Below are positions 12,180 through 35,517 of a stretch of 44,451 bases of DNA, one piece after another. Both the position numbers and the translations under genes were made by a program. Each line of letters opens with the position of its first letter. Positions within the stretch are counted from its first letter, which is position 1. The DNA is from a bacterium (GTDB taxonomy: Bacteria; Bacillota; Clostridia; Christensenellales; Aristaeellaceae): the NCBI GenBank assembly GCA_029009515.1, contig JAQXJZ010000070.1:1-44451 (forward strand), given 5' to 3'. Under the pieces are notes generated by a model that saw only the letters and a list, made by a program, of their open reading frames with translations, searched no databases and was not told the DNA's origin.

Positions 12180-12190
12180 TTCCAACTGCA

Positions 12191-14148: not shown

Positions 14149-14213
14149 GAAAATATCATAGAAGAGATGCGTTCATCAACCCATATATGTCATCACATGA
14201 AGGAGGAACCTGT

Positions 14214-15068: not shown

Positions 15069-15080
15069 GAGGTGTTTTTC

Positions 15081-18152: not shown

Positions 18153-18182
18153 TTGACAAGTAAAAATATCCTAAATTAAAAT
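18153..18182 (+). promoter_or_regulatory. Promoter of the isomerase-to-iolB operon
   Basis: TTGACA (18153-18158), an 18-base spacer and TAAAAT (18177-18182). The -35 is inside GGTATATTGAC-N4-AAAAAT, the same element as in front of the nag genes. It would drive the long operon starting at 18254. Confidence 0.68.
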
Positions 18183-18253: not shown

Positions 18254-19648
18254 ATGCTGGATTATAAAGTCAAGATCGGTCTTGCTCCCATGCGCCGCGA
18301 TGTAACGCCCCGCCCCGGCATCTTCAACTGGGAAAAGGCAGAAGAGCGCGGCCACCGCACTGTTGCCTACATCAAGGAGCACTTTGCCTCCGAGAAGGTC
18401 TCCTTTGTGGACCTGGAAGGCATCAATGATGTAAACGTCATGTATAACGAAAAGGATGCCGAAAAAGTCATCGAGCGTTTCAACGCTGAAAAGGTCGACG
18501 CCGTTTTCGTCATCAACTGTAACTTCGGCAACGAGGAAATCTGTGCGCAGGTCGCCCGCGGCGTGGGCAAGCCCGTGTGCATCTGGGCGCCCATCGACGA
18601 CAGCTTCCTGCCGGACGGCACCCGCTATACCGACAGCCAGTGCGGCATCTTCGGCGTCAGCCGTCAGCTGCAGCGCTTCCACATTCCCTTCAGCTTCATT
18701 GAAACCTGCGCTGTGGACAGCGATCTCTTCGCCAAGGGTTTCCGCAGGTTTGTCTCTGTGAGCTGCATGGTCAAAAATTTCCACGGCATGCGCATCGCGC
18801 AGGTCGGCATGCGACCCAAGCCCTTCTGCTCCGTCATCTTCAATGAGGGCGAGCTGATGGAAAAGTTCGGTCTGCAGGTCATCCCTGTCAATTTGGCCGT
18901 GGTGATCGACAAGTACAACCAGATCCTGGCCGAGCGCGACGCCGAGCTGGAGGAGGGCGCTAAGCTGCTGGAGTCTCGCTATGAAATGGACGATATCACC
19001 CCGCCGCTGCTCAAGAAGGTTTACGCCTTTGTGCTGCTGTATCAGTGGGTGTTTGAAACCTACAATGTGCAGGCTGTTTCCGCCGAGTGCTGGACGGCCA
19101 TGCAGCTGGGCGTAGGCGCAATGCCCTGTACTGCCTACTCCATCCTGGCCGATATGGGCTATATCATCTCCTGCGAAAGCGACATGCACGGCGCCATCAA
19201 CATGGCCATGCTGTCCTGCGCCACGCTGGGCGAGAAGATCCCCTTCTTCGGCGAGTTCACCGTGCGTCATCCCGAAGATGCCAACGGCGAGCTGCTGTGG
19301 CACTGCGGCCCGTTTGCCTACAGCCTCAAGAAGGACGGCTGCCCCTGCAAGAACGTCAACATGCGCCAGTGGTTCCAGGTCAAGGACGGCCAGTACACCG
19401 TGGCCCGCATCGACCAGGACGGCGGCAGGTACAGCCTGCTTGCCGGCACCTGCGAAACCATGGACGGCCCCTACACCTTCGGCACCTACCTGTGGGCAAA
19501 GTTCAAGAATCTGCCCGCCTGGGAGCGCAAGCTGGTTGAAGGCCCCTACATCCACCACATGGCGGAAATCGAGGGCGATGTGACCGAAGAACTCCGGGAG
19601 TTCTGCAAGTTCATTCCTGCGCTGACGCTGGATACCGTAAACGAATAA
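18254..19648 (+). CDS. L-fucose/L-arabinose isomerase-like protein
   Basis: 464-residue member of the FucI/AraA superfamily (COG2407 type), cytoplasmic aldose-ketose isomerases that need Mn2+. It starts after AAAGGAGGAACC. The N-terminal substrate-recognition domain includes FVINCNFGNEE and GMRPKPFCSVIFNEGEL. The C-terminal catalytic part includes AECWTAMQ, CESDMHGAINM (carboxylate ligands) and WHCGPF, with a His pair in YIHHMAE near the end. This is longer than typical AraA C-terminal homologues but shorter than E. coli FucI (about 590), as usual for COG2407. It heads a long operon with aldolase and kinase genes, implying an isomerase, kinase, aldolase route. The sugar, possibly 6-deoxy or otherwise modified, is not determinable. 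Confidence 0.83.
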   Translation: MLDYKVKIGLAPMRRDVTPRPGIFNWEKAEERGHRTVAYIKEHFASEKVSFVDLEGINDVNVMYNEKDAEKVIERFNAEKVDAVFVINCNFGNEEICAQVARGVGKPVCIWAPIDDSFLPDGTRYTDSQCGIFGVSRQLQRFHIPFSFIETCAVDSDLFAKGFRRFVSVSCMVKNFHGMRIAQVGMRPKPFCSVIFNEGELMEKFGLQVIPVNLAVVIDKYNQILAERDAELEEGAKLLESRYEMDDITPPLLKKVYAFVLLYQWVFETYNVQAVSAECWTAMQLGVGAMPCTAYSILADMGYIISCESDMHGAINMAMLSCATLGEKIPFFGEFTVRHPEDANGELLWHCGPFAYSLKKDGCPCKNVNMRQWFQVKDGQYTVARIDQDGGRYSLLAGTCETMDGPYTFGTYLWAKFKNLPAWERKLVEGPYIHHMAEIEGDVTEELREFCKFIPALTLDTVNE

Positions 19649-19683
19649 CCGCATAGCTGTAAAACGAAAGGGGTTTTATCACC

Positions 19684-20514
19684 ATGCTTACCAATATGAG
19701 GGATTTGCTGGCCATCGCCGAGGAGCGCAACTGTGCCATTCCCGCTTTTAACGTCTATAACGGCGAAACCGCCATGGGCATCATCAAGGCTGCTGAAGAA
19801 GCCAACGCCTGCGTCATCCTGCAGATGTACAGCCGCCTGTTCACCAGCGAAGAGGCTGAGTTCATCTCCCCCTCCATCCTCGCTGCCGCCCAGCGCTCTC
19901 CTGTGAAGTTTTGCTTCCATCTGGATCACGGCGCTTCCGACGAGGCTGTCGCCCGCGCCATCCGCTACGGCTGCACCAGCGTCATGCGCGACGCCAGCTC
20001 TATGCCCTTTGAGGAGAACCTGGCTATCATCAAGAACGTGACCCGTTTTGCTCATGACCTGGGCATCGATGTGGAAGCCGAGCTGGGCCACATCGGCCTT
20101 GCCAAGGACGGCGTGAGCGCTGAGTACACCAAGGTGGACGAGGCTGTGCGCTTTGTGGAAGAAACCGGCGTGGAAGCGCTGGCTGTTGCCGTCGGCACCG
20201 CCCACGGTCACTACAAGCAGGCTCCCGTGATCGCCGTCGAACGCATCCGCGAGCTGCATGACGCCATTCCCGCCGCCCTGGTTCTGCACGGCGGCAGCGG
20301 CGTCCCGGACGATCAGATGGTCGCCGCCATCAAGGCCGGTATCCGCAAGGTCAACTTCGGCACTGATGTGTGCCTCGCTTTCCTGGACGCCGTGCACGAA
20401 GTGGATCGTTCCATCATCGGCGTGGACACTTACATGAAGGAGCCCGTGCAGGCCGTGAAGCGCTTTGCGCTGGAGAAGATCAGGCTGCTGGGCGCGGAGG
20501 GCACCAATGCGTAA
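19684..20514 (+). CDS. Class II ketose-bisphosphate aldolase
   Basis: 276-residue Zn-dependent aldolase of the FbaA/GatY/IolJ group. Seen are FHLDHGAS (catalytic Asp and Zn His, about residues 79-83), SVMRDASSMPFEENL (usually SVM.DGS), the Zn-site His in AVGTAHGHY and the phosphate/Zn loops LHGGSGVP and KVNFGTD. It cleaves a ketose phosphate to dihydroxyacetone phosphate and an aldehyde. The ribosome site is AAAGGGG, and it overlaps the PfkB gene by eight bases. Candidate substrates are tagatose-1,6-bisphosphate (fits NagA/NagB), fructose-1,6-bisphosphate, or 6-phospho-5-dehydro-2-deoxygluconate (fits the IolB-like gene). Sequence does not decide between them. Confidence 0.88.
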   Translation: MLTNMRDLLAIAEERNCAIPAFNVYNGETAMGIIKAAEEANACVILQMYSRLFTSEEAEFISPSILAAAQRSPVKFCFHLDHGASDEAVARAIRYGCTSVMRDASSMPFEENLAIIKNVTRFAHDLGIDVEAELGHIGLAKDGVSAEYTKVDEAVRFVEETGVEALAVAVGTAHGHYKQAPVIAVERIRELHDAIPAALVLHGGSGVPDDQMVAAIKAGIRKVNFGTDVCLAFLDAVHEVDRSIIGVDTYMKEPVQAVKRFALEKIRLLGAEGTNA

Positions 20515-21430
20515 CGAATGGCCTGAAGTGATCGGCATCGGTTCCACGGTGTATGACACACTGATGGTGGTGCCGGCCTATCCCACCGAGGATACCAAGA
20601 TGGAAGGGATTGAGACCAAGGTGCAGGGCGGCGGACCGTGCGCAACGGCACTGGTAGCCGCACGCAAGCTGGGCGTTTCTGCTGCTTATCTGGGCACCAT
20701 CGGCGATGATCCTTTCGGCAAATTCATGATGGATGATCTGGAGCACTGGGGCGTGGATACGCAGGATGTACGCCGCATTCCTGACAGCGTGAGCTTCCAT
20801 GCGGTGGTGCTGCTCAACCAGGAAACCAAGAGCCGCACCTGCGTGTGGAGCCGCGGCACCGTTCCGCAGCCCACCGTGGACGACATCAATGAGGAAGTCG
20901 TCAGGCATGCCAGAGTGCTGCATCTGGACGGCCATATGCTGGAGGCCGCCATTGCCACTGCCAAAAAGTGCAATGAACTGGGCGTGAAGGTGAGCCATGA
21001 TGCGGGCGGCACCTATCCCGGCGTTGAGAACCTCATGCCCTATGTGGACTGGCTGATTCCCTCGGAGGAGTTTGCCCTCAAGATGACGGGCGCCGCCACA
21101 GCAGAGGAAGCCGCACAGCAGCTGTATGACACCTATCATCCGGAGCTGGTCGTCCTCACGCAGGGCGTGCGCGGCGGCATCCTGCTGGATGAAAAGGGCA
21201 TGCGCCGCTATGAGAGCTACAAGGTTGAAGTCAAGGATTCCAACGGCTGCGGCGATACCTTCCACGGAGCGTTTGTAGCCGCCAAAATTCATGGCCTGGA
21301 TAACGATGCAGCCTGCAAGTACGCCAGCGCTGCTGCGGCTGTGAAATGCACCCGCCTCGGTGCGCGCTATGCCATGGCTACGGATGCAGAATGCCGCGTT
21401 TTCCTCAAGGAAAGGGGTGTTGAGCTGTGA
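20507..21430 (+). CDS. PfkB-family carbohydrate kinase
   Basis: 307-residue ribokinase-fold kinase. The start MRNEWPEVIGIGSTVYDTLM follows GGAGGG inside the end of the aldolase gene. Family features are the Gly-rich sugar-binding strand KVQGGGPCATALVAARKLG, IGDDPFGKFMMDDL and the C-terminal catalytic motif DSNGCGDTFHGAF, where Asp of GCGD is the base that activates the sugar hydroxyl. It uses ATP to phosphorylate a furanose-type sugar. Position between the aldolase and epimerase genes, with overlaps on both sides, indicates translational coupling and a shared pathway. Plausible roles are tagatose-6-phosphate kinase, an IolC-like kinase, or a kinase for the isomerase product. Confidence 0.9.
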   Translation: MRNEWPEVIGIGSTVYDTLMVVPAYPTEDTKMEGIETKVQGGGPCATALVAARKLGVSAAYLGTIGDDPFGKFMMDDLEHWGVDTQDVRRIPDSVSFHAVVLLNQETKSRTCVWSRGTVPQPTVDDINEEVVRHARVLHLDGHMLEAAIATAKKCNELGVKVSHDAGGTYPGVENLMPYVDWLIPSEEFALKMTGAATAEEAAQQLYDTYHPELVVLTQGVRGGILLDEKGMRRYESYKVEVKDSNGCGDTFHGAFVAAKIHGLDNDAACKYASAAAAVKCTRLGARYAMATDAECRVFLKERGVEL

Positions 21431-22275
21431 GCCTGGTGACCATCCGCAATGAATATCTGACGGTTGATATCTCCACCCTGGGCGCACAGATGCAGTCCAT
21501 CCGGGATGCAGACGGCATCGAGCGCCTCTGGCAGGGCGACCCGGCCTTCTGGGCCGGGCGCGCCCCCATCCTGTTCCCGATGGCCGGCGGACTCCGGGAG
21601 GACTGCTACTATCTGAACGGCGAGCGCTATGAGATGCCCAAGCACGGCTATGTCCGTCTGATCGAATGGGCACTGGAAAAGGCAACCGAAACCAGCGCTG
21701 TTTTCCTCACCACGGAAAAGCACCCCGGCTTCCCGTTCGATTATGAGCTGCGTGCCTGCTACACCCTGGAAGGCAACAGCCTCAGCGTCAGCTATCGCGT
21801 GTCCAACTGCGGCGAAAAGACCTTCTATTTCGGCATTGGCGCGCACGAAGGCTATGCCACACCCGGCGGGCTGGAAGCCTACACCATCGAATTTGAGCAG
21901 CCGGAATGCCTGGCCAATTTTGTGCTGGACGGCAACCTGATCAAAAAGGAACCCGTCATCATGGCGGAAAAGACGGACCGCATGCCGCTGAAGACGGACT
22001 ACTTCGCGGTGGATGCGCTGGTATTCCGCACGCTCAAAAGCCGTGCCGTCACCCTGACCACTCCGCTGCATAACCGCAGGCTGCGCGTTTCGTTTCCGGA
22101 TCATGACGTGCTCATGTTCTGGACCAAGCCCGGCGCGGAGTACATCTGCATCGAACCATGGGTCAATGCGCCCGACTTTGTGGACAGCGATATGCAGATT
22201 GAGCACAAGCCCGGCTGCCTGTGCCTTCAGGCCGGCGAGACCGTGGAACGCACCCATGTGATCACGGTGATGTGA
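21427..22275 (+). CDS. Aldose 1-epimerase (LacX-like mutarotase)
   Basis: 282-residue member of the galactose mutarotase-like superfamily, LacX subgroup. It starts with GTG at 21427, overlapping the kinase stop by four bases, after AAGGAAAGGGG. Visible features are RAPILFPMAGGLRED, KHGYVRLIEW (conserved His), FPFDYELRACYTL and the motif FGIGAHEGYATP, where relatives usually have GGHP. It interconverts anomers of a free or phosphorylated sugar. LacX-type genes are often found beside tagatose-pathway genes, which fits the neighbouring kinase and aldolase. Substrate uncertain; the GAHEGY variant may alter the binding site. Confidence 0.85.
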   Translation: MSLVTIRNEYLTVDISTLGAQMQSIRDADGIERLWQGDPAFWAGRAPILFPMAGGLREDCYYLNGERYEMPKHGYVRLIEWALEKATETSAVFLTTEKHPGFPFDYELRACYTLEGNSLSVSYRVSNCGEKTFYFGIGAHEGYATPGGLEAYTIEFEQPECLANFVLDGNLIKKEPVIMAEKTDRMPLKTDYFAVDALVFRTLKSRAVTLTTPLHNRRLRVSFPDHDVLMFWTKPGAEYICIEPWVNAPDFVDSDMQIEHKPGCLCLQAGETVERTHVITVM

Positions 22276-22287
22276 GGAGGAATCCCT

Positions 22288-22950
22288 ATGGAAAAACTGG
22301 AAGCCCTTCGCAAGCTCAATCCCGGTCTGCCGTTCTTCTCGATTGATGACAGCGAGTTCGCCCGCTTTGGCCGCGTGGTTGATTTTGACGCTTCCACGCT
22401 GATCGAAGCCTGCGAAAAGGCTGCTGAGATGCCTGAAAGCGGCAGCCGCTATGTGCCGGATATGCCGGAGCTGGAAGCCGCCGCCCTCGAAAAGGTGCAG
22501 CACGAGCTGCGCGGCGAGGGTTCCTGCCAGATCGGCTGCTGCTGGGGTCATTCCAGCAGACTCAACTGTCTGGAGTATCACCGCGCCAGCGAGCACAATG
22601 TGGCTGTAAGCGACATTGTGCTGCTCCTGGCCGCCCAGCAGGACATGGAAGCCAATGAATTGCCCGAAGGCAAAATCACGGCGTTCTTTGTACCCAGGGG
22701 CGCGACCATCGAGGTCTACGCCACCACGCTGCACTTCTGCCCCTGCGAAGTCAGCGCAGACGGTTTCCGCTGCATTGTGATCCTGCCGCGCGGCACCAAC
22801 CATCCGCTGGAAAAGCCCCGTCCTGAAACACAGGAAGGCCGTCTGCTCTGGGCCAAGGACAAGTGGCTCATCGCCCATGCCGAAGCGCCCGCCGTGGAAC
22901 GCGGCGCATTTGTAGGCATTCACGGCGAAAACTACGAGATTCATTATTGA
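22288..22950 (+). CDS. DUF4867-like cupin-type protein
   Basis: 220-residue protein with a GAGGAGG ribosome site. It resembles the uncharacterised DUF4867 family as I recall it: start LEALRKLNPGLPFFSIDD, middle LNCLEYHRASEHNVAVSD and later ATTLHFCPCEVS, then LPRGTNHPLEKP and KDKWLIAH. The His and Glu residues in EYHRASEHN and TLHFCPC look like metal ligands of a cupin-like barrel, which would suit a sugar (phosphate) isomerase or lyase. No signal peptide, so cytoplasmic. It sits inside the sugar-catabolic operon between the epimerase and the FAD oxidase, so a step on the same substrate is likely, but no reaction is known to me. Confidence 0.6.
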   Translation: MEKLEALRKLNPGLPFFSIDDSEFARFGRVVDFDASTLIEACEKAAEMPESGSRYVPDMPELEAAALEKVQHELRGEGSCQIGCCWGHSSRLNCLEYHRASEHNVAVSDIVLLLAAQQDMEANELPEGKITAFFVPRGATIEVYATTLHFCPCEVSADGFRCIVILPRGTNHPLEKPRPETQEGRLLWAKDKWLIAHAEAPAVERGAFVGIHGENYEIHY

Positions 22951-22961
22951 GGAGTATGGAT

Positions 22962-24398
22962 ATGGAACTGAAAGCATTTATGCCCGGTATGATCCTTGAC
23001 GAACTCGCGGACGCCGTGGGCGGCTACGAGAACGTATCCATGGAAATGAGCGATCGCGCCACCTATGGCGTGGACTACTTCTGGATTGGCCGTATGTGGC
23101 AGGATCGCGGCGAAGTGCCGCCCATGCCTGACTGGATCGTGCGTCCCGGCGCCACGGAAGAAGTTTCCAAGATCATGAAGATCGCCAACTACTACAAGAT
23201 TCCTGTGCACATCTGGGGCGGCGGCTCCGGCTCTCAGGGCGGCGCCCTGCCGATGAGCGGCGGCATCCTGATGGATATGAAGCGCATGAGCAGGCTCATC
23301 GAGCTGGATGAGGTGTCCCGCACCATTACCGCCGAAGCCGGCATGATCTTCCAGCAGCTGGAGTGGTATGCCAACGAGAAGGGCTATTCCTGCCAGCACA
23401 TCCCCAGCTGCCTCACCTGCGGCACCATTGGCGGCGCGCTGGGTCATCGCGGCATCGGCATCATGTCCACCAAGTACGGCAAGATCGATGACCAGTGCCT
23501 GTCTATGGAAGTCGTTCTGCCCAACGGCGACATCATCAACACCCTGCCCGTGCCCAAGCATGCGGCCGGCCCAGACCTCAACCAGATCTTCATCGGCTCC
23601 GAAGGCACCCTGGGCGTCATCACCAAGGCCACCTTCAAACTCTTTGAACAGCCTGAAGACCGTCAGTTCCGCGCCTTCCTCTTCCCCGACATGAACTCCG
23701 GCTACATGGCTGGCCGCGACATCATGCAGAAAGTGAAGCCCTCCATCCTCCGCTTCTTTGACGAAGCCGAGACCGCTTCCATCATCAAGAAGATCCTTGG
23801 CTTCGAAAAGCAGGGCTGCTTCATGAACCTCGCCGTTGAGGGCATCAAGCGCATCGTGGATATTGAGATGGAAATCATCCTCGAGATCGTCGAAAAGTGG
23901 GGCGGCCAGGATCTGGGCAGCGACTACGGCGAGAAGTGGTTCGAGAACCGCATCACCTTCTTCTATCCCGGCCACATCATGGATATTCCCCAGATGTTCG
24001 GCACCATGGATACCGTCGCCACTTACGCCAACATCGAAAAGATCTACTGGGCCATGAAGAAGGCTATCCATGACAAGTTCGGCGATAAGGTGCGTTACAT
24101 CTCCCATTCCAGCCACTGGTATGAGTGGGGCTGCATGAACTATACCCGCTTCATCGTGGATCCCGCCAACGTGCCTCAGGATCCTGAAGAAGCCCGCCGC
24201 CTCCACAACGAGATCTGGAATACCGGCGTGCGCGCAGCCATGGAAAACGGCGGCGTTATCAACGATCACCACGGCATCGGCCTGAAACTGTCCCGCCTGA
24301 TGAAGGAGCAGTACGGCCCCGCTATGCAGGTAATGGAAGCGCTGAAAAAGCAGCTGGATCCCAATGGCATCATGAATCCCTACAAGCTGGGTCTGTAA
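22962..24398 (+). CDS. FAD-binding oxidase (GlcD/AGPS-type)
   Basis: 478-residue flavoprotein of the FAD_binding_4 (PCMH-type) family. FAD-binding motifs are WGGGSGSQGGALP near residue 85, SCLTCGTIGGALGHRGIG, and GSEGTLGVITKATF. The C-terminal motif is NDHHGIGLKLSRLM, closer to alkyldihydroxyacetonephosphate synthase (HHGxG) than to the GEHGIG of lactate dehydrogenases. I chose ATG 22962, since GAGGAG lies seven bases upstream; the ATG at 22956 is too close to that site. It is followed by a two-cluster Fe-S protein, as in glycolate oxidase GlcD-GlcF pairs, so it probably oxidises a 2-hydroxy acid or polyol and passes electrons to that partner. Substrate unknown. Confidence 0.85.
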   Translation: MELKAFMPGMILDELADAVGGYENVSMEMSDRATYGVDYFWIGRMWQDRGEVPPMPDWIVRPGATEEVSKIMKIANYYKIPVHIWGGGSGSQGGALPMSGGILMDMKRMSRLIELDEVSRTITAEAGMIFQQLEWYANEKGYSCQHIPSCLTCGTIGGALGHRGIGIMSTKYGKIDDQCLSMEVVLPNGDIINTLPVPKHAAGPDLNQIFIGSEGTLGVITKATFKLFEQPEDRQFRAFLFPDMNSGYMAGRDIMQKVKPSILRFFDEAETASIIKKILGFEKQGCFMNLAVEGIKRIVDIEMEIILEIVEKWGGQDLGSDYGEKWFENRITFFYPGHIMDIPQMFGTMDTVATYANIEKIYWAMKKAIHDKFGDKVRYISHSSHWYEWGCMNYTRFIVDPANVPQDPEEARRLHNEIWNTGVRAAMENGGVINDHHGIGLKLSRLMKEQYGPAMQVMEALKKQLDPNGIMNPYKLGL

Positions 24399-24413
24399 GA
24401 GGAGGGTACAAAA

Positions 24414-25535
24414 ATGTTTAGTGAAAAAGCCAAAAAGCATGCGGATGCCTGCCGCTTCTGCTACATGTGCCGTCATCTCTGTCCCATCGAGCTTGTGACC
24501 GGCAAGGAAAACAACACGCCCCGCGCCAAGGGCCTGCAGGTCAGCATGATGGAGCGCGGCATGAAGATGGATAAGGGCTGTGCCGTAACCATGTATGAAT
24601 GCCTGCTCTGCGGCGCCTGCACCGCCGACTGCGTGACCGGCTTTGATCCGCTGATCTTCATCCGCGAAGCCCGTACCCAGGCCATGCTCGAGGAGCTGAC
24701 CCCCGACTTTGCCCAGAAGGTGATCGACAATCTGATGGAAACCGGCAACGCCTACGGCGCGAAGGAATCCAAAGTTCACTATGAAGGCGTCGCTGAGTCC
24801 GGCGAAATCCTCGTATGGCTGGGCAATGCCGCCCGCTATGCTGTACCCGATGTTGCGGAAGCCTTCTTCTCCATCCTGAAGAAGGCTGGCATCGCGTTTG
24901 CCGCCCTCAAGGACGAGCCTGCCTCCGGCTGCGAGCTGGGCGATATGATCGGCCATGTGGAAGATGTGCGCATGCAGGCCAAGGCCGCCGCTGCCGCCAT
25001 TGCCAAAGCCGGCGCAAAGAAGCTGATCGTGCTGGATGCGCACGATGCCGCTTTCTTCCTGCACGAGTGCAAGGACTGGGGCATCGAAGTGCCTCAGGTC
25101 GTCACCGCCACCGCGTTTGTGGAAGAGCTTATCAACGAAGGCAAGATTGCTCCCAAGCCCCTGGGCAAGGTGGTGAGCTATCACGACGCCGCCCGCCTCA
25201 GCCGCGATCTGAGCGAGCTGGAGCCTGCGCGCAATATCATCAAGTCCTTTGCCGAGCTGCATGAGATGTACCTCAACGAGAAGGACAACAAGAACCCCGA
25301 GAACAAGGCCTGCGGCTCCTTCGTTCGCGCCCGCGAATGCGGCTCCTCCATCATGGGCCAGATGAAGCCCGAGCTGTCTGTGCTGCTGTGCCAGAAGCGT
25401 TACGAGGATCTGCTGCGCACCGATTCCCGCATCCTCATCGCCGCCGATCCCCAGGCCACCGAGGCCCTGCGCCTTTCCATTCCCGAAGGTGTGGAATATC
25501 ACGATCTGTTCGTGCTGCTGAACAACCAGATTTAA
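24414..25535 (+). CDS. Two-[4Fe-4S] electron-transfer protein, GlcF/LutA-like
   Basis: 373-residue cytoplasmic Fe-S protein. Two ferredoxin-type clusters are clear: Cys13/16/19/23 (CRFCYMCRHLCP) and Cys63/66/69/73 (CLLCGACTADC). The remaining part resembles the CCG-domain half of GlcF-type proteins, but the family's Cys motifs are degenerate: YHDAARLSRD stands where YHDPCHLGR is usual, and no CCG is present. The non-cubane cluster of heterodisulfide-reductase-like subunits is therefore probably absent. It likely takes electrons from the FAD oxidase encoded fifteen bases upstream and hands them to an ETF. The ribosome site is GAGGAGGG. Confidence 0.8.
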   Translation: MFSEKAKKHADACRFCYMCRHLCPIELVTGKENNTPRAKGLQVSMMERGMKMDKGCAVTMYECLLCGACTADCVTGFDPLIFIREARTQAMLEELTPDFAQKVIDNLMETGNAYGAKESKVHYEGVAESGEILVWLGNAARYAVPDVAEAFFSILKKAGIAFAALKDEPASGCELGDMIGHVEDVRMQAKAAAAAIAKAGAKKLIVLDAHDAAFFLHECKDWGIEVPQVVTATAFVEELINEGKIAPKPLGKVVSYHDAARLSRDLSELEPARNIIKSFAELHEMYLNEKDNKNPENKACGSFVRARECGSSIMGQMKPELSVLLCQKRYEDLLRTDSRILIAADPQATEALRLSIPEGVEYHDLFVLLNNQI

Positions 25536-25550
25536 CAAAAGCCCATCCCA

Positions 25551-25580
25551 GCGGCGCGAGAAGTTTTTTCGCGCCGCCTT
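25551..25580 (+). terminator. Weak intrinsic terminator inside the operon
   Basis: GCGGCGCGA (25551-25559) pairs exactly with TCGCGCCGC (25569-25577) around GAAGTTTTT; only CTTTG follows. The short T tract suggests partial termination, giving less of the downstream flavin and ETF genes than of the sugar genes. Confidence 0.55.
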
Positions 25581-25604
25581 TGATATTTGCTGAGAGGGAT
25601 CGAT

Positions 25605-26786: not shown

Positions 26787-26808
26787 TGCATGAAAGGTTG
26801 CTTTGCGT

Positions 26809-27588: not shown

Positions 27589-27603
27589 GGAGGAGGAAGC
27601 ACC

Positions 27604-28794: not shown

Positions 28795-30191
28795 TGAGCT
28801 TCAATCATGTAACCGAAGCGGATCTGAAATATTTTGAAGAATTGCTTCCCGGCCGCGTCTTCAGCGGCGAGGAAATCTCCACTGACTATGACCATGACGA
28901 AATGACCATCTATGGTCACTATATGCCCGAAGCCGTGCTGCAGGCCCTCACCACCGAGGATGTGAGCGCTGTGCTCAGGTACTGCAATGAGCACAACATC
29001 GCCGTCACGCCGCGCGGCGCGGGCACCGGCCTGTGCGGCGGTTGTGTGGCCATCCACGGCGGCGTGATGCTGTCCACCGAGAAGATGAAGAAGGTTCTGG
29101 AAGTGGACGTCAAGAACATGACCGCCACCGTCGAACCCGGCGTGCTGCTGATGGAGTTCCCCAAGGCTCTTGAAGGCACCGGCCTGTTCTATCCACCGGA
29201 TCCCGGTGAGAAGACCGCGACCATGGGCGGCAACGCCATGACCAATGCCGGCGGCATGCGTGCCGTGCGCTACGGCGTGACCCGCGACTATGTGCTGGGT
29301 ATGGAAGTGGTTCTTGCCAGCGGCGAGGTCATCAACCTCGGCGGCAAAAACGTGAAAACCTCCTCTGGCTACAGCCTGATCGACCTGATGGTTGGTTCGG
29401 AGGGCACGCTGGGCTTCCTGACCAAGCTCACCGTGAAGCTGATCCCCGAACCCAAGGTGAATCTCTCCCTGCTCATGCCCTTTGACGATCTGGACGCCTG
29501 CATCGGCGCGGTTCCTGCCGTGCTGGGCTGCGGCTGCGAGCCCACTGCTGTCGAGTTCATGGAGCGCGAGGTTATCGCCTGTGCCGAGACCTATCTTGGC
29601 AAGCAGTTCCCCGATACCTCTGCCGACGCTTACCTGCTGGTGCGTCTGGACGGCGCGAGCGTGGAAGCGCTTCAACCTGCGATGGATCAGCTGACCGACC
29701 TGGCGCTGTCCATCGGCGCTAAGGATGTGCTGCTGGCTGACACCGACGAGCGCAAGGAGAGCATCTGGAATGCGCGCGGCGCGTTCCTGGAGGCCATCAA
29801 GGGCTCCACGCCCGAAATGGACGAGTGCGACGTTGTTGTGCCGCGCGAGGATATCCCTGCATTTGTGCGCAAGAGCGTTGAAATCGGCAAGAAGCTGGGC
29901 GTGCGCATCTGCTCCTTCGGCCACGCCGGAGACGGAAACCTGCACATCTACGCCTGCAAGGACGACCTTGCTGACGAGGTATGGGAGAAGGCTGTGGAAC
30001 AGGTCATGGATGAACTGTACATCGCCGCGAAGGAAATGGGCGGCGAGGTCAGCGGCGAGCACGGCATCGGCCATGCCAAGAAGGGCTTCCTGGCTGAGAG
30101 CATGGGCGAAACCCAGATGAACCTGATGCGCGGCATCAAGGCTGCATTTGACCCCAAGGGCATCCTGAATCCCGGAAAGGTGGTCGGCTGA
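28794..30191 (+). CDS. FAD-linked 2-hydroxyacid dehydrogenase (LctD-like)
   Basis: 465-residue GlcD/LctD-type flavoprotein. FAD-binding motifs are TPRGAGTGLCGGC, PPDPGEKTATMGGNAMTNAGG, YGVTRDYVLGMEVVL and GSEGTLGFLTKLT. The catalytic region has CSFGHAGDGNLHIY and SGEHGIGHAKKGFL, complete for a D-lactate or 2-hydroxyglutarate dehydrogenase. It sits directly behind etfB-etfA with overlapping codons, as in lctBCD of A. woodii, where the complex drives lactate oxidation with NAD+ at the expense of reduced ferredoxin. The natural substrate here may be lactate or another D-2-hydroxy acid produced by the sugar pathway; the neighbouring racemase supports a chiral hydroxy acid. Confidence 0.87.
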   Translation: MSFNHVTEADLKYFEELLPGRVFSGEEISTDYDHDEMTIYGHYMPEAVLQALTTEDVSAVLRYCNEHNIAVTPRGAGTGLCGGCVAIHGGVMLSTEKMKKVLEVDVKNMTATVEPGVLLMEFPKALEGTGLFYPPDPGEKTATMGGNAMTNAGGMRAVRYGVTRDYVLGMEVVLASGEVINLGGKNVKTSSGYSLIDLMVGSEGTLGFLTKLTVKLIPEPKVNLSLLMPFDDLDACIGAVPAVLGCGCEPTAVEFMEREVIACAETYLGKQFPDTSADAYLLVRLDGASVEALQPAMDQLTDLALSIGAKDVLLADTDERKESIWNARGAFLEAIKGSTPEMDECDVVVPREDIPAFVRKSVEIGKKLGVRICSFGHAGDGNLHIYACKDDLADEVWEKAVEQVMDELYIAAKEMGGEVSGEHGIGHAKKGFLAESMGETQMNLMRGIKAAFDPKGILNPGKVVG

Positions 30192-31459
30192 TGAAGGCAA
30201 TTGAACTGCCGTTTGGTCACGGCAAACAGACATTGCATGTGGAGGAGAGCCGCCTGCAGGCCGTCCTTGCTCCCGCTCACGGTGAAAAGCAGAGCGAATC
30301 TCAGCAGGCCATCGTGCAGGCCGCGCTGGAAAACCCCGTCGGCACGCCCCGCCTGTGCGAGCTGGTACAAGGCAAGGCAAAGATCGTGGTCATCACCAGC
30401 GATCACACACGCCCCGTGCCCAGCGCCGTGACCATGCCACTGCTGCTGCGCGAAATCCGCAAAGGCAATCCTGATGCGCACATCACCCTGCTGGTGGCCA
30501 CCGGCATGCATCGCCCCACCACAGAAGCCGAGCTGCGCGCCAAATACGGCGATGAGATTGTGGACAACGAGACCTTCGTCATTCACAAGGCGCAGGAAAT
30601 GGAAAACATGACCTTCTTCGGCACCCTGCCCTCCGGCGGCGAATTGTGGCTGAACAGGCTGGTAGGGGAGGCCGATCTGGTCATCTCCGAGGGCTTCATC
30701 GAGCCGCATTTCTTTGCCGGCTTCTCCGGCGGGCGCAAGAGCATCCTGCCGGGCGTGGCTTCTGCCAAAACGGTTCTGTACAACCACAACGCCCGCTTCC
30801 TGCAGAGCCCCCACGCCCGTCAGGGCAGCCTGGATGAGAATCCCATCCACCGTGATATGCTCTTTGCCGCCCAGCAGGCCAAACTGGCGTTCATTCTCAA
30901 CGTGATCATTGATGCGGACAAGCGCGTGATTGCGGCGTTCAGCGGCCATCATGAGCAGGCGCACCGCGCCGGCTGCCGCCTGTGCGAAACGCTGACCCGC
31001 GTTGAGCCCGTGGTTTCCGATATCGCCGTCACATCCAACGGCGGCTATCCGCTGGATCAGAACGTGTACCAGTCCGTCAAGGGCATGACCGCTGCGGAAA
31101 GCTGCGTGCGCGAGGGCGGAGCCATCATCATCTGCGCGGCTTTGGGCGACGGCCACGGCGGCGAGGCCTTCTACCGCTGGTTTGCCGACCGTGCCAGCGC
31201 TGCCGAAGTGGCGCAGGCCATCGAAAGCGTGCCTCCTGAAAACACCTTCATGGACCAGTGGGAGGCGCAGATCCTGGCCCGTGTGATGCTCAAGGCCAAC
31301 TGCTGGTTCGTAACCGGCGAAGAAAACCGCGCCCTGATCGAAACCGTGCACATGCGCTGGGCGCCCGATGCCGATACCGCCCTGGCAGAGGCCACGGCGC
31401 TGCTTGGCGCAAACGCCACCGTTACCGTTATCCCCGACGGCGTGGGCGTGATTGTTTGA
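30191..31459 (+). CDS. LarA-type nickel-dependent racemase/epimerase
   Basis: 422-residue LarA superfamily protein that starts on the last base of the dehydrogenase gene (TGATG). Residues known from L. plantarum LarA are all present one position earlier: DHTRP (71-75), His107 in ATGMHRP, His173 in EPHFFAG, Lys183 in GGRKSILPG and His199 in YNHN. The enzyme should therefore bind the nickel-pincer cofactor and invert a 2-hydroxy acid carbon. LarA homologues act on lactate, malate and other hydroxy acids, so the substrate is open. Cofactor genes larB, larC and larE are not in the window. It probably feeds the correct isomer to the LctD-like enzyme. Confidence 0.85.
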   Translation: MKAIELPFGHGKQTLHVEESRLQAVLAPAHGEKQSESQQAIVQAALENPVGTPRLCELVQGKAKIVVITSDHTRPVPSAVTMPLLLREIRKGNPDAHITLLVATGMHRPTTEAELRAKYGDEIVDNETFVIHKAQEMENMTFFGTLPSGGELWLNRLVGEADLVISEGFIEPHFFAGFSGGRKSILPGVASAKTVLYNHNARFLQSPHARQGSLDENPIHRDMLFAAQQAKLAFILNVIIDADKRVIAAFSGHHEQAHRAGCRLCETLTRVEPVVSDIAVTSNGGYPLDQNVYQSVKGMTAAESCVREGGAIIICAALGDGHGGEAFYRWFADRASAAEVAQAIESVPPENTFMDQWEAQILARVMLKANCWFVTGEENRALIETVHMRWAPDADTALAEATALLGANATVTVIPDGVGVIV

Positions 31460-31473
31460 AAGGAGGGAATGCC

Positions 31474-32940
31474 ATGAAATATCTGCTTGGCGTTGACTTT
31501 GGCGGCAGCTCCTCCAAGGTGACTCTTCTGGGCGAGGACGGGCGCGTATATGCAACCGCCAGCCAGGAATATCCCACCTATTATCCGCACAACGGCTGGG
31601 CGGAGCAGGATGCAGCGGACAGCTACAATGCCATGTGCGCCAACGTGCGTCACATTTTAAAGGAATCCGGCGTGAACCCCGCTGATATTGCCGCGATGGC
31701 TCTGGATGCGGCCACGCACACCGCCGTGCTGCTGGGTGAGGATGATCAGCCCGTGCGCCGTGCCATCTACTGGACGGATACACGCGCCGCCAAACAGGCC
31801 GCGCAGCTGAAGCAGAAGATGGGTCCGCAGCTGATTGAGGAATGCTACAACGGCGTATCCAGCCTCTGGACGCTTCCTCAGCTGATATGGCTGAAGGAAA
31901 ACGAGCCGGAAGTGATCCGCAGCACCCACAAGGTGATGGCTGTCAAGGACTATGTCCGCTTCCGTCTTACCGGCGACTATGTAACCGACTCCATTGAGGC
32001 CATGGGTTTCCTGCTGCTGGACGCCCGCAGCAACTGCTGGTCTGAAAAGCTGTGCGGACTGGCAGGGATTGACCCTGCCATCATGCCCGAAATCGTGGAT
32101 CCCATGCAAAAGCTCTCTCCCCTGACCCCACAGGCACAGGAGGATACCGGGCTTTGCGCATCCACCATCGTCATTGCCGGCGCAACCGACACAGTGATGG
32201 AGGTCTATGCCTCCGGCGCCATTCAGCCCGGTCAGGCTACAGTGAAGCTGGCCACTGCGGGCCGCATCTGCTCCATCACGGATCATGCAGTGGTGGATCC
32301 CCGTCTGGTGACCTACCGCCATGTGGTAGAGGGTATGTGGTATCCCGGCACGGCCACCAAGAGCTGCGCCGCTTCCAACCGCTGGTACCGCGATACCTTT
32401 GGCGGCAGCTTTGACGAAATGAGCGCAGCTGCGGCAGAAGTGCCGCGAGGCTGCGAGGGGTTGTTCTTCCACCCCTATCTGCAGGGAGAAATCACGCCCT
32501 ATCTGGATGACAGGCTCCGCGCCAGCTTCGTAGGTGCGGCAGGCTTCCATACCAAGGCGTACTTCAACCGCGCAGTGCTGGAGGGCGTGGCCTATTCCAT
32601 GAAGGACTGTATCTCCACGCTGGAGGAACTGGGCATCGCGCCTAAAGAGGCGGTCGCCATCGGCGGCGGCGCAAAGAGCGCACTGTGGCGCCAGATCCTT
32701 TCGGACATGCTGAACATGCCCCTCACCACCGTGGAAAATGTGGACAGTTCTCTGGGCAGCGCCATGATGGCCGGCGTAGCAGCTGGCGTGTTTGCCAGCC
32801 ATGCACAGGCCGTGGAGCGCTGTGTGCGCATAACGGGCGTGACGAAACCCGATCCCGAGGGAGCAGCCTTCTATGAGGAGCAGTTCAGGCTCTACAAGCA
32901 GATTCAGCAGGCGCTTGCGCCCATCTATCATCAGCTGTAA
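31474..32940 (+). CDS. FGGY-family carbohydrate kinase
   Basis: 488-residue ATP-dependent sugar kinase of the xylulokinase/gluconokinase group. It starts MKYLLGVDFGGSSSKVTLL after AAAGGAGGG. The phosphate-binding Gly-rich loop is in DFGGSSSK, then YWTDTRAAKQA, the presumed catalytic Asp in IAGATDTVMEVYASGA, and the ATP-site motif GGGAKSALWRQILSDMLNMPL. It phosphorylates an open-chain or ketose sugar, or a sugar acid. It follows the LarA gene by fourteen bases and precedes the second ETF pair by twelve, so it belongs to the same operon. The window thus has two sugar kinases (PfkB and FGGY) that may act on different intermediates. Confidence 0.9.
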   Translation: MKYLLGVDFGGSSSKVTLLGEDGRVYATASQEYPTYYPHNGWAEQDAADSYNAMCANVRHILKESGVNPADIAAMALDAATHTAVLLGEDDQPVRRAIYWTDTRAAKQAAQLKQKMGPQLIEECYNGVSSLWTLPQLIWLKENEPEVIRSTHKVMAVKDYVRFRLTGDYVTDSIEAMGFLLLDARSNCWSEKLCGLAGIDPAIMPEIVDPMQKLSPLTPQAQEDTGLCASTIVIAGATDTVMEVYASGAIQPGQATVKLATAGRICSITDHAVVDPRLVTYRHVVEGMWYPGTATKSCAASNRWYRDTFGGSFDEMSAAAAEVPRGCEGLFFHPYLQGEITPYLDDRLRASFVGAAGFHTKAYFNRAVLEGVAYSMKDCISTLEELGIAPKEAVAIGGGAKSALWRQILSDMLNMPLTTVENVDSSLGSAMMAGVAAGVFASHAQAVERCVRITGVTKPDPEGAAFYEEQFRLYKQIQQALAPIYHQL

Positions 32941-32952
32941 ACCGGAGGTACC

Positions 32953-33714
32953 ATGCGGATCCTTGTATGTGTCAAACAGGTTCCCGATACAACTGAAGTC
33001 AAGCTTTCCAGCGAATATACCCTCCAGCGTGATTTTGTAGCCCAGGTGATGAACCCTGCCGATGAAAGCGCGCTGGAGAAGGCGCTGGCGCTGCGCGATC
33101 AGCACGGCGGCACCGTAACGGTGATGACCATGGGGCCTGCCCGTGCCGAAAGCATGCTGCGCGAGGCCATCACACGCGGTGCGGACGAGGCCATACACTT
33201 GACCGACAGCGCCTTTGCCGGTGCGGACACACTGGTGACGGCCAAATGCCTGCAGGCTGCATCAGAAATGGGCGAAGGCTTTGACCTCATCCTGTGCGGC
33301 CGCCGTGCTGTGGACGGTGAAACCGGTCAGGTGGGGCCGATGGTGGCAGCACTGCTGGATGTGCCCTGCGTGCCCAATGCCACCGATGTGCGTCTGGAAA
33401 ACAATGCGCTTGTGATCGACCAGCTGACGGAAGCCGGCGTGATCACCTGGCAGGCATGTTTTCCCGCTGTGATCACCTTCTGCGAGTGGAGCCACCATCT
33501 GCGTCTGCCGACCCTGATGGGCATGCGCAGAGCCAGGAACGCGCAAATCAGGCGTGTCACCGCGCAGGAACTGGGTATAAAGGAAACAGGGCTGAAAGCA
33601 TCGCCTACGCGCGTTGTGCGCATTCATTCCCGCCCTGTAGGGGTAAGGCCCTGCCAAAAGCTTCCGGTAGATGAAGTGCTTGCCGCGCTTGTGCATAAGG
33701 AGGTGCTTCCGTGA
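32953..33714 (+). CDS. etfB: Second electron transfer flavoprotein beta subunit
   Basis: 253-residue EtfB/FixA protein. The ribosome site is CGGAGG. It starts MRILVCVKQVPDTTEVKL and has CGRRAVDGETGQVGPMVAALLDVP, the same nucleotide-binding region as the first copy but clearly diverged in sequence. It forms a heterodimer with the following alpha subunit, whose GTG start overlaps its stop by four bases. This pair lacks the ferredoxin module and may serve the FAD oxidase and Fe-S protein upstream or another dehydrogenase. Two separate ETF pairs in one operon suggest two different electron donors or acceptors. Confidence 0.87.
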   Translation: MRILVCVKQVPDTTEVKLSSEYTLQRDFVAQVMNPADESALEKALALRDQHGGTVTVMTMGPARAESMLREAITRGADEAIHLTDSAFAGADTLVTAKCLQAASEMGEGFDLILCGRRAVDGETGQVGPMVAALLDVPCVPNATDVRLENNALVIDQLTEAGVITWQACFPAVITFCEWSHHLRLPTLMGMRRARNAQIRRVTAQELGIKETGLKASPTRVVRIHSRPVGVRPCQKLPVDEVLAALVHKEVLP

Positions 33715-34646
33715 CGATTGTCATCATTGCCGAACAGCAGGGAAATACGGCGCTGGAGCTGACCTTCAAGGCACGGACCATCGCTCCGGAAGCCCGGATC
33801 ATCGTCCTGTGCGAGGAGGGAAACGAGGCGGATTTCGGCTCAGCCGGCGCGGATGAACAGCTTCTGATTCCTGCGCTGGAGGACGACTGCGCGCAGGCAG
33901 AGCGGCTTGCAGACGCGCTGGCGCAGATCGGGCCGGATGCAGCGCTGTTCCCGGCCACGGTGCGCGGACGCTTCCTCTCTGCGTGGGCGGCAGCCCGTCT
34001 GGACACGGGCCTGACTGCTGACTGCACGGAGCTGTGCATCACGGATGATGGGCTGCTCAAACAGATCCGCCCTGCTTTCGGCGGCAACCTGACAGCCGAA
34101 ATTCTCTGCCGTACACACAGGCCGCAGCTGGCCAGCGTGCGTCCCGGAGTGTTTCCACTGCCTGCAAAGCAGCCGGAAAGAATCCTTGTGCAAAAGCACA
34201 TCTCATTGGCAGATGTAAAAACCTATCTCCGGAAAATCGCCTTCCGCCCGGTTCAAAGCGAGGTTTCCCTGCAGAATGCAGAGGTGATCGTCACCGGCGG
34301 CAAGGGTGTCGGCAGTGCCAAAGCTTTTGAAAAGTTGGAAAAGCTGGCTGGGCTGCTGGGCGGAGCCGTGGGCGCAACGCGCAGCGCCGTGGATGCAGGC
34401 TGGATTTCCTATGCCCATCAGATCGGGCAGACAGGCGTAAACGTGCAGCCCAGGCTGTACATCGCCTTTGGCGTGAGCGGCTTTGTGCAGCATACCGTGG
34501 GCATGAACAGCTCAGAAATCGTGGTCGCTGTGAATACCGACCGCAACGCCCCCATCTTTTCCTGCGCGGATTATGGAATCGTCGCCGATTGGGAAGAAAC
34601 CATCGACGCCATGATACAATTTTTACAAAATCAAAAGGAGGCATAA
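33711..34646 (+). CDS. etfA: Second electron transfer flavoprotein alpha subunit
   Basis: 311-residue EtfA/FixB protein without the ferredoxin domain found in the first copy. It starts with GTG at 33711, which overlaps the etfB stop by four bases, after AAGGAGGTG. The C-terminal FAD signature is complete: VTGGKGVGSAKAFEKLE, HQIGQTGVNVQP, YIAFGVSGFVQHTVGM and VNTDRNAPIFSCADYGIVAD. It would accept electrons from a flavin dehydrogenase and pass them on through its FAD. In the same operon are two possible donors, the AGPS-like FAD oxidase and the PF12831 flavoprotein. Partner choice is inferred from context only. Confidence 0.88.
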   Translation: MTIVIIAEQQGNTALELTFKARTIAPEARIIVLCEEGNEADFGSAGADEQLLIPALEDDCAQAERLADALAQIGPDAALFPATVRGRFLSAWAAARLDTGLTADCTELCITDDGLLKQIRPAFGGNLTAEILCRTHRPQLASVRPGVFPLPAKQPERILVQKHISLADVKTYLRKIAFRPVQSEVSLQNAEVIVTGGKGVGSAKAFEKLEKLAGLLGGAVGATRSAVDAGWISYAHQIGQTGVNVQPRLYIAFGVSGFVQHTVGMNSSEIVVAVNTDRNAPIFSCADYGIVADWEETIDAMIQFLQNQKEA

Positions 34647-34649
34647 ACC

Positions 34650-35465
34650 ATGAACTTCAAAAAGACCTATGTTCCGCAAAACGGCTATACTCCGCTGTGC
34701 AAGATCGGCGAGTGCTCCCTGAAGGATCTTGAGTTCGGCATCATCGAGCTCACCCCCGGCCAGGCGTATACCTTCAACACCGAAAACAAGGAAACGGCTT
34801 TCGTGATGCTCTGGGGCAGCGCCAATTTCAGCGCCAAGGGCGAAGACTACGGCAAGCTGGGTGTGCGCGCCACGGTGTTTGCCAACCCCAAGGCCGAGTG
34901 CTTCTATGCCGGCCGTGAAACCGAAGTGCAGATTGTGAGCATTCACAACTGCAAAATCGCCGTGTGTGCCACTCCTATCGATGTGGACACCGAGCCCCAG
35001 GCCATCCATCAGGCAGATGTGCGCGTGACCCGTCTGGGCGTGAAGCCCTGGGAACGCGACACCAGCTTCATCGTGGACGGAACCACCAACGCCAGGAAGC
35101 TCACCATTGGCGAAGCCTACTGCACCCCCGGCAACTGGGCCGGCTTCCCGCCCCACAAGCACGATGTGGACGATATGCCCCGCGAGTGCGTGGCCGAGGA
35201 AGTATACTACTTCCTGTTTGATCCTCAGCAGGGTTTCGGCGTACAGTGCCTCTATACTGCCGACGGCTCCATCGACGAGGCTTACCGCGTCAAGAACGAC
35301 GAGCTGGTAGAGTTCCCCTATGGCTATCACACCACCGTGAGCGCCCCCGGCTACAACACCTACTTCCTGTGGCTGATGGCCGGCAAGCATCAGGGTTTCT
35401 GCCGCGTGAACGATCCGGACCATGCCTGGGTCAGCGCTGTGGAGAACATGGTCAAGAAGATGTAA
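34650..35465 (+). CDS. 5-deoxy-glucuronate isomerase family protein (IolB-like)
   Basis: 271-residue bicupin of the IolB/KduI group with the ribosome site AAAAGGAGG. The metal-site region reads NWAGFPPHKHDVDDMP then EEVYYFLFDPQQGFGVQCLYT, and the family end motif is GYHTTVSAPGYNTYFLWLMAG. Length matches IolB (about 271). IolB isomerises 5-deoxyglucuronate to 5-dehydro-2-deoxygluconate in inositol catabolism, which an IolC-type PfkB kinase and IolJ-type class II aldolase then process. Such a kinase and aldolase lie at the start of this operon, but IolD and IolE are absent. It may therefore isomerise a different deoxy-uronate. It is the last gene before a bidirectional terminator. Confidence 0.85.
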   Translation: MNFKKTYVPQNGYTPLCKIGECSLKDLEFGIIELTPGQAYTFNTENKETAFVMLWGSANFSAKGEDYGKLGVRATVFANPKAECFYAGRETEVQIVSIHNCKIAVCATPIDVDTEPQAIHQADVRVTRLGVKPWERDTSFIVDGTTNARKLTIGEAYCTPGNWAGFPPHKHDVDDMPRECVAEEVYYFLFDPQQGFGVQCLYTADGSIDEAYRVKNDELVEFPYGYHTTVSAPGYNTYFLWLMAGKHQGFCRVNDPDHAWVSAVENMVKKM

Positions 35466-35487: not shown

Positions 35488-35517
35488 AAGAGCGCCATAC
35501 GGCGCTCTTCTTTGTTT
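35488..35517 (+). terminator. Bidirectional terminator
   Basis: AAGAGCGCC (35488-35496) and GGCGCTCTT (35501-35509) flank a 4-base loop. CTTTGTTT follows on the plus strand and TTTAGG on the minus strand. It separates the converging iolB-like and URO-D-like genes. Confidence 0.82.

What the first reader, a model, noticed from the sequence alone, without database searches (positions are those of the whole stretch)
18254..35465. Fifteen-gene operon joining a sugar route with flavin electron transfer: candidate undescribed pathway
One promoter is followed by an isomerase, class II aldolase, PfkB kinase, mutarotase, DUF4867-like protein, FAD oxidase, Fe-S protein, FAD oxidoreductase, ETF with ferredoxin domain, LctD-like dehydrogenase, LarA racemase, FGGY kinase, second ETF and IolB-like isomerase. 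Gaps are short or overlapping, and only one weak internal terminator is seen. I know of no described pathway with this combination. It implies that oxidation of a hydroxy acid or sugar derivative is tied to energy conservation during carbohydrate fermentation.
Basis: partly seen in the sequence, partly recalled or inferred. Interest (0 to 1): 0.72.

Follow-up and report, generated by a model that had tools for sequence, protein, structure and literature searches.

The report
Conserved sugar-splitting and flavin-oxidation operon
Gut bacteria carry a tightly conserved set of genes that probably splits an unphosphorylated sugar into two smaller pieces and oxidises part of it with a flavin enzyme; the gene families are known, the pathway was not found in the papers searched, and its substrate is still unknown.

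Summary
There are 16 genes, not 15, on one strand, with a promoter-like site before the first and a hairpin after the last.
The operon is not an accident of one genome. In 200 genomes of its family, the 9 with a close isomerase (79% identity or more) are the same 9 that have the GlcD/AGPS-like flavoprotein. The core (isomerase, class II aldolase, PfkB, flavoprotein, Fe-S protein, FGGY kinase, ETF, IolB) recurs, in one of two gene orders, in other clostridial families.
It is modular. LctBCD and LarA are known, optional insertions, and the sugar-splitting and flavin modules each also occur alone.
Residues point to unphosphorylated sugars: the aldolase has the Cys of YdjI, not the Lys of a bisphosphate aldolase, and linked NagB-like proteins have lost the phosphate-binding elements. 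Best reading: aldose, or N-acetyl-amino sugar, to ketose, to ketose-1-phosphate, to DHAP plus an aldehyde, joined to a flavin dehydrogenase with a bifurcation-type ETF.
Sulfo-EMP2, inositol, GalNAc-6-P and fucose pathways each fail a defining feature. The substrate and the roles of FGGY and IolB are unknown. E. coli K-12 has a distant, uncharacterised counterpart (ygcU/ygcRQ, with a different FGGY kinase, ygcE).

The parts
18153..18182 (+). promoter-like site, TTGACA-18-TAAAAT
   Evidence: 11 of 12 positions
18254..19648 (+). ISO, aldose-ketose isomerase of the AraA/FucI fold, distant relative of sulfoquinovose isomerase SftI
   Evidence: (SftI model 124.9 bits, cut-off 700)
19684..20514 (+). 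ALD2, class II aldolase, YdjI-like
   Evidence: 40% to YdjI, 36% to KbaY
20507..21430 (+). PfkB-family sugar kinase
21427..22275 (+). aldose 1-epimerase (mutarotase)
22288..22950 (+). DUF4867 protein (SftX/SqvB family, function unknown)
   Evidence: family context
22962..24398 (+). GlcDa, GlcD/AGPS-like FAD dehydrogenase
24414..25535 (+). Fe-S protein, partner of GlcDa (weak GlpC/LdhH-like matches)
   Evidence: beside GlcDa in 28 of 28 informative loci
25551..25577 (+). internal terminator-like hairpin
25605..26786 (+). FAD_oxidored (PF12831) flavoprotein, optional
26809..27588 (+). ETF beta 1 (LctB-like), optional
27604..28794 (+). ETF alpha 1 with ferredoxin domain (LctC-like), optional
28794..30191 (+). 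LctD, lactate dehydrogenase subunit, optional
   Evidence: 554.6 bits to 7qh2_C
30191..31459 (+). LarA, nickel-dependent lactate racemase, optional
   Evidence: (595.2 bits, cut-off 460)
31474..32940 (+). FGGY kinase of a branch that lies beside GlcDa relatives
32953..33714 (+). ETF beta 2, bifurcation-type
33711..34646 (+). ETF alpha 2
34650..35465 (+). IolB/KduI-family isomerase
   Evidence: (210.9 bits, cut-off 205)
35488..35509 (+). terminator-like hairpin after the last gene
14187..15068 (+). NagB-like protein 1 without the NagB phosphate site; likely linked
15072..16250 (+). NagA-like deacetylase; likely linked
   Evidence: (266.5 bits, cut-off 225.65)
16269..17066 (+). NagB-like protein 2 without the NagB phosphate site; likely linked
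7170..14089 (+). response regulator, sugar ABC transporter (binding protein and two permeases) and sensor kinase; likely linked
   Evidence: recur wholly or partly in at least 9 distinct related loci

Best explanation
A conserved catabolic operon for an imported, unphosphorylated aldose and probably its N-acetyl-amino counterpart. Inferred route: ISO turns the aldose into a ketose, with mutarotase and DUF4867 helping to supply the right ring or open form. Where present, NagA-like and NagB-like enzymes turn the 2-acetamido sugar into a ketose. PfkB phosphorylates C1, and the YdjI-like aldolase splits the ketose-1-phosphate into DHAP and an aldehyde, most simply glyceraldehyde. The second core module (GlcDa, Fe-S protein, ETF2, FGGY, IolB) oxidises a further hydroxy compound and passes the electrons through Fe-S clusters to a bifurcation-type ETF, while IolB isomerises and FGGY phosphorylates an intermediate. 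Where present, LctBCD and LarA oxidise and racemise lactate. Shown: gene content, conservation, family of each enzyme, predicted fold of ISO, residue changes. Inferred: reaction order, substrate class, electron path. Unknown: the sugar, the substrate of GlcDa, and what FGGY and IolB act on.
For: Same 9 of 200 family genomes have ISO at 79% or more and GlcDa. In 28 informative distinct GlcDa loci: Fe-S 28, FGGY 25, ETF2 25, IolB 23, PfkB 22, ALD2 21, ISO 16. ISO has the AraA/FucI fold. ALD2 is nearest to YdjI and has its Cys where KbaY has Lys; of six cluster aldolases aligned, five have Cys and one Tyr. All 12 NagB-like rows (10 distinct) lack two residues of the phosphate loop and have no Arg172 or Lys208. 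L040, a related cluster without GlcDa, has aldehyde dehydrogenase, enolase and glycerate-kinase relatives, as glyceraldehyde would need (all below cut-offs). ETF2 beta scores 134-168 bits with Car, Lct and similar ETFs, 56-81 with others (which of these bifurcate is recalled).
Against: No enzyme was assayed. The role of the aldolase Lys/Cys position and of the NagB residues is recalled, and the control AgaI also lacks Arg172. NagA Arg227 is not Arg in the window and four distinct relatives but is Arg in L132. IolB passes the cut-off of true 5-deoxyglucuronate isomerase, which this route does not explain. The window operon has no aldehyde dehydrogenase, though the genome has at least one. Six of 28 informative loci have the flavin module without ISO, ALD2 or PfkB, so the two modules may serve different substrates. 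In G058 ISO and GlcDa are on different contigs, so linkage is not seen there.
Confidence: 0.48

Rival explanations
1. Sulfosugar catabolism of the sulfo-EMP2 kind: sulfoquinovose isomerase, kinase, class II aldolase and DUF4867, giving DHAP and sulfolactaldehyde, with the hydroxy-acid enzymes acting on sulfolactate.
For: ISO's only NCBIfam match is SftI; DUF4867 and a PF01116 aldolase are sulfo-EMP2 components.
Against: SftI model 124.9 bits against a cut-off of 700; kinase is PfkB (PF00294), not PF00365 SqiK; no sulfoquinovosidase or sulfolactaldehyde reductase among the window genes scanned; glycerate-type genes in the related L040.
Confidence: 0.1
2. An inositol-type branch: IolB, an IolC-like PfkB and an IolJ-like aldolase take a deoxy-keto acid to DHAP and malonate semialdehyde, fed by GlcDa oxidation of a cyclitol or sugar acid.
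For: IolB above cut-off; PfkB matches IolC at 105 bits; PF01116 aldolase.
Against: IolC match far below its cut-off of 300; no IolD in the 86% complete genome; ISO, FGGY and NagA/NagB-like genes unexplained.
Confidence: 0.12
3. A 6-deoxy sugar route giving DHAP and lactaldehyde, with lactate then oxidised by LctBCD and LarA.
For: LctBCD and LarA sit in the operon and in part of its relatives; ISO has the fucose isomerase fold.
Against: LctBCD is optional (4 of 11 comparable loci) and a second set stands alone elsewhere in the genome; no lactaldehyde dehydrogenase in the operon; L040 points to glyceraldehyde.
Confidence: 0.12
4. Two or three independent modules that merely share an operon, such as a sugar-splitting route and a separate polyol or hydroxy-acid oxidation route.
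For: Optional LctBCD, LarA, mutarotase, DUF4867 and FAD_oxidored genes; both main modules also occur apart.
Against: Same 9-genome distribution of ISO and GlcDa and interleaved gene order in distant families, where ALD2 and PfkB lie between Fe-S and IolB.
Confidence: 0.18

Closest known systems
Sulfo-EMP2 sulfoglycolysis (SqvD, SqvB, SqiK, SqiA)
   Same: Logic of isomerase, kinase, class II aldolase, with DUF4867
   Different: Isomerase far below the SftI cut-off, kinase of another family, no sulfoquinovosidase or SLA reductase seen; flavin module added
E. coli ydjH/ydjI kinase-aldolase pair
   Same: PfkB-family kinase next to a class II aldolase; ALD2 40% identical to YdjI with the same Cys
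   Different: No isomerase, FAD dehydrogenase, FGGY or ETF in the ydj stretch read; PfkB only 25% identical to YdjH
Acetobacterium woodii LctBCD with lactate racemase
   Same: Genes 26809-31459 are the same enzymes by sequence
   Different: Here an optional insertion in a sugar operon; LarC and LarE not found
E. coli ygc cluster (ygcN-ygcE)
   Same: AGPS-like FAD dehydrogenase YgcU (32% to GlcDa), an ETF pair (YgcR/Q), an FGGY kinase
   Different: YgcE is another FGGY branch (23%); no IolB, isomerase or aldolase among the genes listed there
FGGY-FAD pairs of Roseibium, Paracoccus and Mesorhizobium plasmids
   Same: FGGY (39%) beside a GlcDa relative (30-45%), FGGYs in the same tree branch
   Different: No ETF or sugar-splitting genes in the stretches read; Roseibium and Paracoccus add a glycerol dehydrogenase and an SDR

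Membership tests
Sulfo-EMP2 pathway | sulfoquinovose isomerase of the SftI/SqvD family | tested here: not met
   124.9 bits vs cut-off 700
Sulfo-EMP2 pathway | PF00365 kinase SqiK | tested here: not met
   kinase is PF00294 (SqiK family from passages of PMC9594981)
Sulfo-EMP2 pathway | PF01116 aldolase and DUF4867 | tested here: met
Sulfo-EMP2 pathway | sulfoquinovosidase and SLA reductase/dehydrogenase in the cluster | tested here: not met
   none in the window genes scanned with Pfam; the rest of the genome was not searched
Myo-inositol (Iol) pathway | IolB | tested here: met
   210.9 bits, cut-off 205
Myo-inositol (Iol) pathway | IolD | tested here: not met
   no match in the 86% complete genome
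Myo-inositol (Iol) pathway | IolC kinase | tested here: not met
   105.1 bits vs cut-off 300
GalNAc/GlcNAc 6-phosphate (Aga/Nag) route | NagB with its phosphate-binding residues | tested here: not met
   loop shortened, Arg172 and Lys208 replaced in all 12 NagB-like rows, 10 distinct; residue roles recalled
GalNAc/GlcNAc 6-phosphate (Aga/Nag) route | bisphosphate aldolase with Lys/Arg at the distal phosphate | tested here: not met
   Cys in the window; residue role recalled
L-fucose pathway | FucI over the Pfam cut-off and a FucA-type aldolase | tested here: not met
   Fucose_iso_C 20.2 vs 29.3; aldolase is PF01116
Confurcating lactate dehydrogenase LctBCD | LctD next to ETF beta and an ETF alpha with ferredoxin domain | tested here: met
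Confurcating lactate dehydrogenase LctBCD | ferredoxin- and NAD-dependent lactate oxidation | not testable with these tools
   needs enzyme assay
Nickel-dependent lactate racemase | LarA sequence | tested here: met
   595.2 bits, cut-off 460
Nickel-dependent lactate racemase | NPN cofactor genes LarC, LarE in the genome | tested here: inconclusive
   LarC not found, LarE none over cut-off; genome 86% complete
Bifurcating ETF (for ETF2) | sequence nearest to bifurcating ETFs | tested here: met
   134-168 vs 56-81 bits; which ETFs bifurcate is recalled
Alkyl-DHAP synthase | overall sequence similarity | tested here: inconclusive
   best PDB match, 158 bits over residues 50-476; the AlphaFold model was unusable (pLDDT 40.5)
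Alkyl-DHAP synthase | alkyl-for-acyl exchange on DHAP | not testable with these tools
   needs enzyme assay

The most novel reading that the evidence does not exclude
The GlcDa + Fe-S + ETF2 + FGGY + IolB set is an undescribed flavin-confurcating sugar or polyol oxidation route, found in Clostridia and, wholly or in part, in Spirochaete, Synergistaceae, Chloroflexota and Acidobacteria MAGs, with divergent relatives on alphaproteobacterial plasmids and in the orphan ygc cluster of E. coli. In Clostridia it is joined to a new phosphate-free entry for amino sugars and aldoses that splits ketose-1-phosphates, so that sugar fermentation exchanges electrons with the ferredoxin pool.
Probability: 0.33. 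Interest if true: 0.78.

Novelty: new variant of a known kind. Interest (0 to 1): 0.58.

Why it matters
A core of eight enzyme functions kept together in several clostridial families is good evidence of a real pathway. Family models label its parts fucose isomerase, glycolate oxidase, xylulokinase and inositol isomerase, which are probably wrong in detail. Knowing it would correct predictions of what gut and rumen Clostridia eat and how they balance electrons, give DUF4867 a further context, and offer a handle on the uncharacterised E. coli ygcU/ygcE/ygcRQ locus, which can be tested in a laboratory strain. The NagB-like enzymes without a phosphate site are a second testable prediction: deamination of an amino sugar before phosphorylation.

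Tried and rejected

Literature: searches brought no description of this gene set in the listings shown; the library lacks most subscription journals. PMC11968277, PMC9594981 and PMC13219744 were read as search passages only; all other papers were seen as listings.

Limits of the counts: 7 recognised duplicate loci were dropped; only 28 of 61 distinct GlcDa loci had at least 4.5 kb upstream and 7 kb downstream. The window itself is not among them. Only neighbours within 9.5 kb on the same strand, with a best BLAST match to a window protein, were counted, so some are missed (IolB of L032, L052 and L058 is seen). One search took 20 of the 27 places other than the window, mostly on larger contigs. 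One search took 12 loci of ISO at 59% or more and 8 of those at about 37-39%. GlcDa relatives on plasmids are a large family (749 records); seven of the 25 listed were opened (two had no annotation) and one more through the E. coli collection. Many neighbour genes were named by eye; only those were checked with HMMs. Branch supports of the FGGY tree were not examined.
Full report
What is there. The stretch 18254-35465 holds 16 co-directional genes with gaps of -8 to +51 bp between the frames used. Families come from Pfam and NCBIfam and from PDB sequence matches. The best promoter-like site lies just upstream (18153-18182, 11 of 12). A 12-pair hairpin separates the Fe-S gene from the next gene, and a 9-pair hairpin follows the last gene. 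The scan finds about as many such sites in shuffles, so these are suggestive only.

Who has it. The window lies in an incomplete genome (86% complete, 3.7% contamination). Its relative G152 is on a contig of the same length and gene content as a record titled Christensenellaceae (L037, L053). In 200 genomes of the family, 164 have some isomerase match at E 0.001 or less, but only 9, the window's included, at 79% identity or more. GlcDa occurs in 9 at E 1e-60 or less. They are the same 9; in G058 the two genes are on different contigs. Three further genomes have the isomerase at 59-64% and no GlcDa. In the class, 27 of 391 genomes, the window's included, have GlcDa at E 1e-100 or less. A scan of GTDB genomes gave 41 GlcDa loci, among them Hungatella hathewayi, a Lachnospiraceae, a Synergistaceae, two Spirochaete, an Acidobacteria, a Caldilineae and an Anaerolinea record.

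What is conserved. After removing 7 recognised duplicates there are 61 distinct GlcDa loci, 28 with enough flanking DNA; the window is not counted. In the 28: Fe-S protein 28, FGGY 25, ETF2 25, IolB 23, PfkB 22, aldolase 21, isomerase 16, DUF4867 10, LarA 6, mutarotase 5, NagB-like 5, NagA-like 4, FAD_oxidored 4, LctD 3. The whole core is counted in 11 of 28, and in 14 if IolB genes beyond 9.5 kb in L032, L052 and L058 are added. Six of the 28 lack isomerase, aldolase and PfkB. In other clostridial families the usual order is isomerase, GlcDa, Fe-S, aldolase, PfkB, IolB, FGGY and a single ETF gene of about 450 residues with beta and alpha parts (one checked). So the operon is modular, but its core travels together. 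Nine loci with isomerases of only 36-39% identity (L043-L051) and the three at 59-64% (L040-L042) have no GlcDa in the stretch read.

Entry of amino sugars. Two NagB-like genes and a NagA-like gene lie upstream of the window operon, and such genes lie inside the cluster in L124, L126 and L132. All 12 NagB-like rows aligned (10 distinct) lack two residues of the phosphate loop and have neither Arg172 nor Lys208. The control E. coli AgaI keeps the loop length and the lysine but also lacks the arginine. At NagA Arg227 the window and four distinct relatives have another residue, while L132 has Arg. The roles of these residues are recalled. They suggest deacetylation and deamination of a sugar that carries no 6-phosphate. 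A transporter and two-component pair like the window's flank the operon, wholly or partly, in at least 9 distinct relatives (L032, L037, L054, L058, L066, L068, L069, L070, L086).

Module B, flavin oxidation. GlcDa is nearest in the PDB to alkyl-DHAP synthase over residues 50-476, whereas LctD aligns over 48-308. ETF2 beta scores 134-168 bits with ETFs of caffeyl-CoA reductase, LctB and others that I recall as bifurcating, and 56-81 with the rest. FGGYs of these loci group in a FastTree tree with FGGYs that lie beside GlcDa relatives in Roseibium, Paracoccus and Mesorhizobium, with XylB outside (supports not examined). Of the 15 best FGGY hits shown among plasmids, 14 lie next to a listed GlcDa hit. 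E. coli K-12 has a distant set: YgcU (32% identical to GlcDa), the ETF pair YgcR/Q, and YgcE, which is another FGGY branch.

Optional module C. Genes 26809-31459 are LctB, LctC, LctD and LarA by sequence. A second set, 85-87% identical, stands alone elsewhere in the genome without LarA. In 11 loci with isomerase at 79% or more where both Fe-S and FGGY genes are visible (L032, L035-L039, L052, L054, L057, L058, L070), LctD is in the cluster in 4 and LarA in 6. LarC was not found in the window's genome or in the three other LarA-bearing genomes searched, and no LarE passed its cut-off. All four are incomplete, so this is an oddity rather than a result.

Interpretation. I prefer an operon for unphosphorylated aldoses and N-acetyl-amino sugars that runs through a ketose-1-phosphate to DHAP and an aldehyde, joined with a flavin dehydrogenase coupled to a bifurcation-type ETF. 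Lactate genes are added in some species. An RnfC_N match in the genome would let reduced ferredoxin conserve energy, but nothing here shows that. The weakest parts are the substrate of GlcDa, the role of FGGY, and IolB, which scores as a true 5-deoxyglucuronate isomerase.

Known or new. No paper describing this gene set was found with searches in an open-licence library that lacks most subscription journals. Sulfo-EMP2, inositol, Aga/Nag and fucose pathways each fail a defining feature tested here. The enzymes are of known families; the combination is what appears undescribed.

Noticed in passing
NC_000913 2892657-2903374 (L155, L157): The uncharacterised E. coli K-12 ygc cluster has an AGPS-like FAD dehydrogenase (YgcU, 32% to GlcDa), an ETF pair and an FGGY kinase, all annotated 'putative'.
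   Followed up: partly
window 30191-31459; genomes G000, G071, G141, G152: LarA is present, but no LarC and no LarE over cut-off were found in these incomplete genomes.
   Followed up: partly
G000 contig C80 5184-8572 (L169): A second, stand-alone LctBCD set, 85-87% identical to the one in the operon.
   Followed up: partly
window 14187-15068 and 16269-17066: Two divergent NagB-like proteins with the phosphate loop shortened and the phosphate residues replaced.
   Followed up: partly
L124 2134-3831 and L064 7424-9184: A long MurQ-like SIS protein beside NagB-like genes in two related clusters.
   Followed up: partly
L076 6387-8845: In a Synergistaceae cluster with GlcDa, a glycine reductase component B protein (PF09338) and, by eye, a second subunit lie with FGGY and a transporter gene.
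   Followed up: no
L040 5550-12029: Isomerase-aldolase cluster without GlcDa but with aldehyde dehydrogenase, enolase and glycerate-kinase relatives.
   Followed up: partly
window 35544-36500, minus strand: A URO-D/MtaA-like methyltransferase gene ends against the operon; by eye a URO-D-like gene also lies near the FGGY-GlcDa pair in L087, and a 35% relative in L072.
   Followed up: no
L126 16445-17809 and similar genes in L123-L137: ETF beta and alpha parts in one gene of about 450 residues in the second type of cluster.
   Followed up: no
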